Positions 28,080 through 31,078 of a stretch of DNA of 64,000 nt are shown here, in pieces. Within the stretch, counting starts at the first letter, position 1, and the number at the start of each line of letters is the position of its first letter. The stretch lies in the NCBI GenBank assembly GCA_903927345.1, contig CAIYMO010000049.1, forward strand, positions 124,001 to 188,000, in the 5' to 3' direction. The position numbers were made by a program, and so were the translations under genes. The DNA comes from an uncultured Armatimonadota bacterium. Its GTDB lineage: Bacteria; Armatimonadota; Fimbriimonadia; Fimbriimonadales; Fimbriimonadaceae. The notes below the pieces were generated by a model. It was not told the origin of the DNA. It saw nothing but the letters and a program-made list of their open reading frames with translations, and made no database searches.

Positions 28080-28920
28080 TCAAGCTACTTTTGATTTTCG
28101 CTTCTTAATGAGTGCTAGCACTCCGAGACCTAGAGCAGCCATTGATGCTGGTTCTGGCGTGGTTGCTGCTTGATATTGAGCTAGGATGCGATCTGGAGAA
28201 AGAGCCGTTCCAAAAACAGCAACATCCGACATGGACCCAAAGTATTGATAGGCACCGTAGCCCGGCATGCCGCCAATCTTTAGCGTGTCTTGAGCCATCG
28301 ACCAAGTAAACGGCTGATTGTTAGTCGCCACTTGCTGGCCATCTATGTAAAGAGCAAGTCCTGTTGCGGTGTTTGCAGTAAAAGCGTATTGGTGCCACTT
28401 TCCGTTTGCGAAGTTTCCTACGGCTCCCGTTTGCATGTGAGGTTGACTTCTTATGACACCATGGACGCTTTCTAACTGATCATTGAAGCTGTCTGTTTGC
28501 AACCTGCAAAGACCCCCCCCCCGCCGGAGCCGTATCAATTCGGTAGTCAAGCATGTCGTAGATTCCGCGACCGTCTTGACCAGGATTTACGACGACTCCA
28601 GGACAATTAAACCAGAGTGTCACAGTCAGCCCGTTTGCTCCCTTGAAACTGCTGGGAGAAGTCGCCTGGATGGAGATGTCTCCTCCATTGAAGAGGGCTG
28701 ATGTGGCTCCCGTTCCCCCCGATGCGCCAAATGTTACGTTGCCACTGACTGCCCCATGATGACCAAATCCGGAGTAGTCCTGAGCGACAGTTGAGCCAGC
28801 CGCCTCATTAAGCCGCCAGTAGCCCAGGGGGCTGTCAGCCATGATCGTCGAAGTAAGATCAGCGTGCGCCAAGCCCGAAAGGAAGAGTGCCCCAAGACAG
28901 GTGAAGTGAAGTTTGTTCAT
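28080..28920 (-). pseudogene. LamG-like PEP-CTERM surface protein, frame broken at a G10 tract
   Basis: Two overlapping frames make one gene. The 5' part starts at 28920 with the signal MNKLHFTCLGALFLSGLAHA and the LamG-like opening SPLGYWRLNEAAGSTVAQDYS; it runs into ten G residues (C10 on the plus strand, 28513-28522) and stops 11 codons later. The 3' frame continues NDQLESVHGVI, WHQYAFTANTATGLALYIDG and LKIGGMPGYGAYQYFGSMSDVAVF, and ends in a PEP-CTERM sorting signal (TPEPASMAALGLGVLALI then KKRKSK). With nine G residues the frames join into about 279 residues with no other defect. The tract may be a phase-variable switch or a base-calling error. LamG domains bind glycans; PEP-CTERM proteins are sorted by exosortase, not seen here. 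Terminator follows. Confidence 0.8.
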
Positions 28921-29333: not shown

Positions 29334-31078
29334 GTGCCAAAGATTGAGCTAAAACTCTTCGGATCGCCCAGTCTATTCTTAGATGGCATTGATGTCACTC
29401 CAGACCGTCCGGTGGGATTTGAAATCTTGGCAAAGGTCATCGTTGCGGGGGTCGACGGCGTCAGCAGGGCGAGCCTGTCGACTTTGCTATGGCCAGATAT
29501 CCCGACGACCAAGGCGAGAACTAATCTCCGAGTGAACCTGGCGAATCTCCGAGCGGAGCTCAGCCAAATCGGGATCACAGATTCTTTTGAGCTTGATGAT
29601 GCTGTGTTGCGTACCAAGGGGGTGATCGGAGTTGATCTCCGTAGGTTCTTGGCAAGACCGATTCGATCTGTGTCGGAGCTGGAAGCGGCCATCCTCCCCT
29701 TGTGTCAGGGATGGGATCGGGAGCGGTGGCAAGAGGAGAACGAGGCGGTGGCATCACATCTTGCCGAAGGGTTCTGCAGGATACGTCAGACCTCTCCCAA
29801 AGTGGACACTTTGCATCTGCTCAGGACCGCAGTCAAATCTCATCTGGTTTCGACGCAGTTAACAACGCTGTATGTGGATGCACTGACAGGTCAAAACCGG
29901 GTCGATGAGGCGACTCAGGCGGTCATTGACTTCGAAAACGCATGGATCAGTCGGTTCGGAGTGGCTGACCTGCCGAATATTTCGCTTGACGCGGTGGCTC
30001 AGCCAATAGCGATGGAGTCTCGGCACAAAGCGATGACTTATGCGGTTCCCTTGTGCTGCTTGCTTGTGGCGGTGGTTGCTGTGGGATACACATTGAATCG
30101 CCCTGGGGGGAAGGAGAAGAGTCCGAAGTTGGCCGTTACAGACGTAAAGCGGGAGTCGGGATTTGAGATTAAGAAGATTTTTACGGAGGGGGCGGAACCG
30201 AGAGAGATTTCGCCCTTGCTCGGTTTCAGTGGGCAGCCGATGTTGCACTATCGAAACCAGATTTTCGAAGTGCAACAACCGGGGCAGATTTCTCCGATTC
30301 GAGACACCCAGTGGATTCCGGTGGATACGAATGGTAACTCCAAACTGGAGGTCAGTCCCGACGCTTCGCTGCTGCGAATCTCAACGGCATCGAGCCGAGA
30401 CAACATCCGTCCCGTCGCTGACTACCCCTACTTTGACGCCCCAATGATCGTGGAAGATGGGAGCGTCGTCTATAACCGACGGTGCGGGCACTCGTTTCGA
30501 GACCATCGGAAGCTTTGCTATTGGAAGAATGGAACAGAGACTCTGATCCATATTTCGACGCCCGAACCACAGAATGCCGTGGTGACGTGTAAGACGGCGC
30601 GAGGCATTTTGGGAAGTACAGCATGGGAAAAAGTGACGGTTGGAAGTATCACACCTTCTACTTTGATTTCCAGTCTCAGAAAACTCAGATGCTTGACACC
30701 CCGCCCGTTATTGCCGAGCTGGGCGAATCGCTTCTAGTGCGGCCCGAGAGGACAGATGTTGTCAATGGGGACTACCGGAATCATCCTCTTGACTACGCGT
30801 TGCTGATCGACAAAAGTGGTCGACAAAGAAGGATCTCGCTTGCCTCGAATGACGATGTGCTGGGAATTTTTGGCGGTTACATTTACGTCTGTCGAAAGAA
30901 GACCCAGTTCACCAGTGACCTAGAGTTTCTGAATTTTGATTTGGAACAGGTCAACCCGTTCCCCAGCCTTCCGAAGGAAGTTGCGTCATTTGGGGTGCGT
31001 ACCGAAGAGATTGCGATCTGTGTTGGGTTTGATCGTGATCGTCCAACGAGGGAACTGCTACTTCTGTCCAAAAGTTGA
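29334..31078 (+). pseudogene. Membrane-tethered BTAD/SARP-like regulator, frame broken at an A5 tract
   Basis: The N-terminal part begins PKIELKLFGSPSLFLDGIDV and has the OmpR-like winged helix of SARP proteins (VSRASLSTLLWPDIPTTKAR then NLRVNLANLRAELSQIG), followed by a helical BTAD-like region to about residue 215. One membrane helix (about 233-253, VPLCCLLVAVVAVGYTL) leads to a beta-rich outer domain of about 330 residues with no recognised family. The layout is ToxR/CadC-like: DNA binding inside, sensing outside. The frame stops at 30737; one added A in the A5 run at 30628-30632 restores GSTAWEKSDGWKYHTFY and reads on to 31078, about 581 residues in all. It may be decay, slippage or an error. 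It stands divergent to the LamG gene, its possible target. Confidence 0.75.

What the first reader, a model, noticed from the sequence alone, without database searches (positions are those of the whole stretch)
28513..28522. G10 tract switches a LamG/PEP-CTERM surface protein off
The gene reads through cleanly with nine G residues and is broken with ten. Homopolymeric G tracts inside surface-protein genes are classic slipped-strand phase switches. A LamG-type exported protein is a fitting target.
Basis: partly seen in the sequence, partly recalled or inferred. Interest (0 to 1): 0.55.

Follow-up and report, generated by a model that had tools for sequence, protein, structure and literature searches.

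The report
G10 tract breaking an exported-protein gene
A run of ten Gs, the longest in this bacterium's genome, throws a gene for an exported lectin-like protein out of frame; related bacteria show similar G runs in other exported-protein genes, so it may be an on/off switch, but nothing here proves that it switches.

Summary
In detail: ten C on +, 28513-28522 (G10 on the coding strand), join two halves of one LamG/PEP-CTERM gene that are out of frame. It is the only run of nine or more G in the 3.1-Mb genome. Sequence alone cannot show that it switches.

For a switch: in the same family (Fimbriimonadaceae) G/C runs of 9-13 sit at the signal peptide of exported proteins, mostly out of frame. 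In one homologous set, three of six relatives found by protein search (not by tract) carry such a run, all out of frame. In one genome two paralogues (91% DNA identity at the 5' end) carry G10 (off) and G12 (on).

Against: the window's tract lies mid-gene; 28 of 28 LamG/PEP-CTERM relatives examined lack any run of seven; the neighbouring gene (29334-31078) is also frame-broken without a long run, so decay or local consensus error stays possible; automatic tests of all tracts gave modest or no enrichment.

Best reading: candidate contingency (phase-variable) locus, probability about 0.45. New member of a known kind; the family-level pattern is the more interesting lead.

The parts
28513..28522 (-). 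G10 tract (C10 on +)
   Evidence: only run of nine or more G in the genome
28480..28920 (-). N half of the gene: signal-peptide-like start and first half of a LamG domain; ends 10 codons after the tract
   Evidence: signal peptide by a crude rule only
28080..28550 (-). C half of the gene, next frame: second half of Laminin_G_3 and PEP-CTERM signal
   Evidence: PF13385 E 1.7e-12, PF07589 24.9 bits over cut-off 20.7; TIGR02595 21.3 over 16; read through, PF13385 1-150 of 151
29334..31078 (+). divergent neighbour gene, also frame-broken near 30593-30640 without a long run (context, counts against the switch reading)

Best explanation
The G10 tract is a contingency-type (phase-variable) site: slipped-strand mispairing adds or removes a G, so that cells with 9 or 12 G make the full exported LamG/PEP-CTERM protein and cells with 10 or 11 make a half-domain without the sorting signal. 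In the assembled consensus the gene is off. Shown: the tract, the broken frame, that both halves form one LamG domain, that the tract is unique in the genome, and that similar runs recur in exported-protein genes of the same bacterial family. Inferred: that this run changes length at a high rate, that both states occur in the population, and that the protein acts at the cell surface.
For: Longest G run of the genome, outside the decay of run lengths. Reading frame, LamG domain and PEP-CTERM signal intact on both sides of the run, so any break is recent or reversible. Same family: runs of 9-13 at signal peptides of exported proteins in L107, L112, L143, L153, L170, L179, L181, L187, L198, L199. 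Homologues found by protein, not tract: L225, L238, L247 carry a run of at least nine at the signal peptide and are off, 3 of 6 broad matches. Paralogues L153 (G10, off) and L179 (G12, on), 91% identical DNA over 265 bases. Same-genus G9 in a methyltransferase gene (L207).
Against: The run is mid-gene, unlike the signal-peptide runs of the relatives. 28 of 28 LamG/PEP-CTERM homologue loci lack a run of seven. The L112 protein's four relatives lack runs. Neighbour gene 29334-31078 is frame-broken too. Most genus runs lie outside genes. Automatic enrichment is modest: genus 10 of 69 against 161 of 1648 random sites, family 15 of 58 against 153 of 1484; frame-off signal-peptide ORFs 13 of 126 against 379 of 7800, p 0.011, while frame-on ones are rarer at tracts, 7 of 126 against 1851 of 7800. 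No length variant of this locus seen.
Confidence: 0.45

Rival explanations
1. Gene decay: a slip in a chance G run has broken a dispensable, lineage-specific gene; it is a young pseudogene and does not switch in any useful way.
For: No close homologue in the other 100 genomes searched (best 28% identity) and none in genome contigs: a dispensable gene. The adjacent gene 29334-31078 is broken as well. The run is not shared by homologues.
Against: No further stop or frame change in either half, and PEP-CTERM tail intact; the run length is itself an outlier.
Confidence: 0.28
2. Consensus error: the true run has an in-frame length and the gene is intact.
For: Sequencing platform unknown; runs of this length are the hardest to call; a second frame break lies 2 kb away.
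Against: Of 57 coding segments in the window only this gene and 29334-31078 look frame-broken, so the assembly is not indel-ridden. Even an in-frame run would leave a long, slip-prone G run inside the gene.
Confidence: 0.22
3. The run is decoded by transcriptional or ribosomal slippage, so an off-frame DNA allele still gives some full-length protein without any change in DNA.
For: Hand tally of signal-peptide-proximal runs in relatives leans to off: 13 off (L200 included), 3 on.
Against: That tally does not differ from the 2:1 expected of random lengths (P 0.17); both frame offsets occur among them.
Confidence: 0.05

Closest known systems
G/C homopolymer contingency loci of Campylobacter (review PMC8355987; abstract and passages seen)
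   Same: G run inside an open reading frame; change by one base changes the frame; surface-related product
   Different: Campylobacter loci have measured length variation; here none is measured, and this genome has one such run instead of many
5' homopolymer tracts as general gene-inactivation sites (Orsi et al., PMC2831843; abstract and outline seen)
   Same: Homopolymer in a coding gene giving frame-off alleles; the relatives' runs are near the 5' end as in that survey
   Different: That survey is about poly-A/T; here poly-G/C, and the window's run is mid-gene
Phase-variable DNA methyltransferases (phasevarions; PMC7394358 seen as listing with start of abstract)
   Same: L207: a G9 run splits an N6_N4_Mtase gene in a same-genus genome
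   Different: Not in the window's genome; type of the enzyme and switching untested

Membership tests
Homopolymer (simple-sequence) phase-variable gene | Long homopolymer inside the coding sequence | tested here: met
   G10 in the joined gene
Homopolymer (simple-sequence) phase-variable gene | A change of one or two units toggles the frame between full-length and truncated product | tested here: met
   Open frames on both sides, offset by one
Homopolymer (simple-sequence) phase-variable gene | Run longer than chance in that genome | tested here: inconclusive
   Outlier against the genome's own run lengths, not against a dinucleotide shuffle for G8
Homopolymer (simple-sequence) phase-variable gene | Length polymorphism within a population or between close strains | not testable with these tools
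Homopolymer (simple-sequence) phase-variable gene | Run kept in homologues | tested here: not met
   28 of 28 LamG/PEP-CTERM loci without a run of seven; not strictly required for a contingency locus
PEP-CTERM exported protein | C-terminal PEP-CTERM signal over curated cut-off | tested here: met
   PF07589, TIGR02595
PEP-CTERM exported protein | Exosortase in the genome | not tested
   Not searched
LamG / concanavalin A-like domain protein | Laminin_G_3 match over the whole profile | tested here: met
   1-150 of 151 read through

The most novel reading that the evidence does not exclude
Fimbriimonadaceae (Armatimonadota) carry a set of poly-G/poly-C contingency loci, placed mostly at the signal peptide of large lineage-specific exported proteins and once in a DNA methyltransferase, which switch the extracellular protein repertoire of these bacteria at random; the window's G10 gene is the one such locus of its genome.
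Probability: 0.4. Interest if true: 0.65.

Novelty: new member of a known kind. Interest (0 to 1): 0.45.

Why it matters
Homopolymer phase variation is known best from host-associated bacteria (recalled; compare). If Armatimonadota use it for exported proteins, that would point to fluctuating pressure on their surfaces, such as phages or grazers, and gives a direct test: mixed tract lengths in existing metagenome reads at named loci. Searches of the held library for 'phase variation' with Armatimonadetes, with Armatimonadota, and 'phase-variable' with Fimbriimonadaceae found 0 papers each; other literature was not searched.

Tried and rejected
Other frame breaks in the window: the codon-model scan flagged six genes; on inspection of the open frames five look like adjacent genes or start-choice effects (not tested by homology), and only 29334-31078 stayed, confirmed against a relative. 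Poly-A: five runs of nine and one of ten exist in the genome, counted by hand, so length alone is not special to G; not pursued. The 177 positions of G>=11 in G106 proved to be few very long runs, several at contig ends: artefact-like. Many long 'genes' around runs in high-GC G045 look like spurious ORFs. The spanning-ORF test (55 of 127 tracts in some ORF in some phase) was too lenient to use: random in-gene sites got a signal-peptide call in 194 of 670. L200 lacks a start codon in the signal-peptide frame and may be dead for that reason; L050 and L137's off list do not convince by eye. The L112 protein search was negative for runs (4 of 4 relatives without a run of six). Dropped rows: 5 of 79 genus runs at contig ends were not fetched; runs within 200 or 350 bases of a stretch end were skipped; family genomes other than G045, G029, G021 and G106 were sampled only in part. 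Of the hits, 29 loci were looked at; most match only about 90 C-terminal residues.

Full report
OBSERVATION. The + strand has ten C at 28513-28522. On the - strand the ORF 28480-28920 (146 aa) enters the G run in one frame and ends 10 codons after it; the ORF 28080-28550 is open in the next frame. The N half alone matches no Pfam family; the C half matches Laminin_G_3 over 73-150 of 151 and PEP-CTERM; read through, Laminin_G_3 is matched over 1-150. So one LamG/PEP-CTERM gene is split at the run. The truncated product lacks half of the LamG domain and the sorting signal.

IS THE RUN UNUSUAL? In the 3,106,875-base genome (57 contigs) it is the only run of nine or more G on either strand. Of 26 runs of at least seven, 23 have seven, 2 eight, 0 nine and 1 ten. 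The shuffle is not significant for G8 in the window (26 of 100 shuffles reach the count), but that null predicts far more long runs than the genome has. In the genus (20 genomes) there are 79 runs of at least nine; this genome has one.

IS THE ASSEMBLY INDEL-PRONE? A codon-model scan of the window found 57 coding segments, six with a flagged frame change. Five look like neighbouring genes or start-choice effects. One holds: 29334-31078, whose relatives lie in open frames of 600 and 646 aa; the 646-aa one aligns in frame 3 up to 30614 and in frame 2 from 30593. It is the divergent neighbour of the LamG gene and has no long run there. This counts against the switch reading: local decay or a local consensus problem would explain both.

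RELATIVES OF THE GENE. Of 101 genomes, own included, 56 have a match to the read-through protein, mostly to the C-terminal half; the best outside the own genome is 28% identical, E 7e-10. Genome contigs gave none. In 28 homologue loci (L004-L031) no G/C run of seven or more lies in the open frame or the 100 bases before it. The run is not a feature of the gene family.

RELATED RUNS IN THE FAMILY. The family is Fimbriimonadaceae: contig C15 of G043 (family f1) has the length of record JADLBH010000015.1 of a Fimbriimonadaceae MAG, which holds the same protein. Around runs of at least nine or ten, several exported-protein genes are split in or just behind the signal peptide: L112 (G018, same genus, G12), L107 (G015, same genus, G13), L143 (G029, G12), L181 (G029, C13), L198 and L199 (G043, G13 and G12), L153 (G045, G10), L170 (G045, C10) and L187 (G106, C12), all out of frame; L179 (G045, G12), L219 (G009, C9) and L220 (G009, C10) are in frame. 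L200 (G043, G12) is a paralogue of L199 without a start codon in that frame. A G9 run splits an N6_N4_Mtase gene in G015 (L207). Signal peptides were judged by a crude rule and by eye, not by a dedicated predictor.

HOMOLOGY TEST. Proteins behind these runs fall into homologous groups across genera: L143 with L199 and L200; L187 with L112 and L170; L173 with L182. To avoid choosing by run, I searched 85 family genomes with the L199 protein. Apart from loci already found by run, six hits match broadly: L225, L237, L226, L238, L228 and L247. Three carry a run of at least nine directly at the end of a clear signal peptide, out of frame: L238 (G11), L225 (C9), L247 (C9); L237, L226 and L228 have no run of seven there. 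With at most some tens of such runs per genome, this is far above random placement (rough reasoning, not computed). L225's record has a contig name (k201_...) that I recall as typical of a short-read assembler, and the C9 is in that record too, which speaks against long-read homopolymer error there. The same test with the L112 protein was negative: four relatives, none with a run of six.

LENGTH VARIATION. In G045 the loci L153 and L179 are 91% identical over 265 bases across the signal peptide and run; one has G10 and is off, the other G12 and is on. This is variation between paralogues, not within a population.

AUTOMATIC TESTS are weaker than the picked examples. Signal peptide near a run: genus 10 of 69 against 161 of 1648 random sites; family 15 of 58 against 153 of 1484. 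Frame-off signal-peptide ORFs: 13 of 126 runs (window included) against 379 of 7800 random sites, p 0.011; frame-on: 7 of 126 against 1851 of 7800. By hand I count 13 off (L200 included, window not) and 3 on among signal-peptide-proximal runs; random lengths predict 2:1, P of 13 or more off 0.17. Most genus runs lie outside genes.

VERDICT. The run is real in the assembly and breaks the gene. A switch is plausible and fits a pattern in the family, but this locus differs from that pattern in position and has no known variant, and two ordinary rivals (decay, consensus error) together weigh about as much. The family-level pattern is the part worth following.

Noticed in passing
window 29334-31078 (+): A gene whose relatives are single open frames of 600-646 aa is split into two ORFs by a frame change near 30593-30640, with no long run there.
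   Followed up: partly
L207:87-1893 (G015:C2): A G9 run splits a DNA methyltransferase gene (N6_N4_Mtase, E 3.4e-31) out of frame in a same-genus genome: a phasevarion-like candidate.
   Followed up: partly
L153 and L179 (G045): Two near-identical 5' ends of exported-protein genes with G10 (off) and G12 (on) in the signal peptide.
   Followed up: partly
L225, L238, L247, L143, L199, L200: One family of about 500-aa exported proteins without a Pfam match (L199 tested) carries G/C runs of 9-12 at the signal peptide in several genera.
   Followed up: partly
L115 (G018), L150 (G106), L111 (G018), L202 (G051): G/C runs lie just before the start codon of exported-protein genes, where length could change translation or transcription.
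   Followed up: no
contig ends in G106, G014, G016, G023, G036: Very long G runs at the ends of contigs, which look like assembly artefacts and inflate counts of long runs.
   Followed up: no
L048 (G017:C1): A 3.7-kb contig with an ORF resembling a eukaryotic repeat or retroelement protein by eye; possible contamination of that genome.
   Followed up: no
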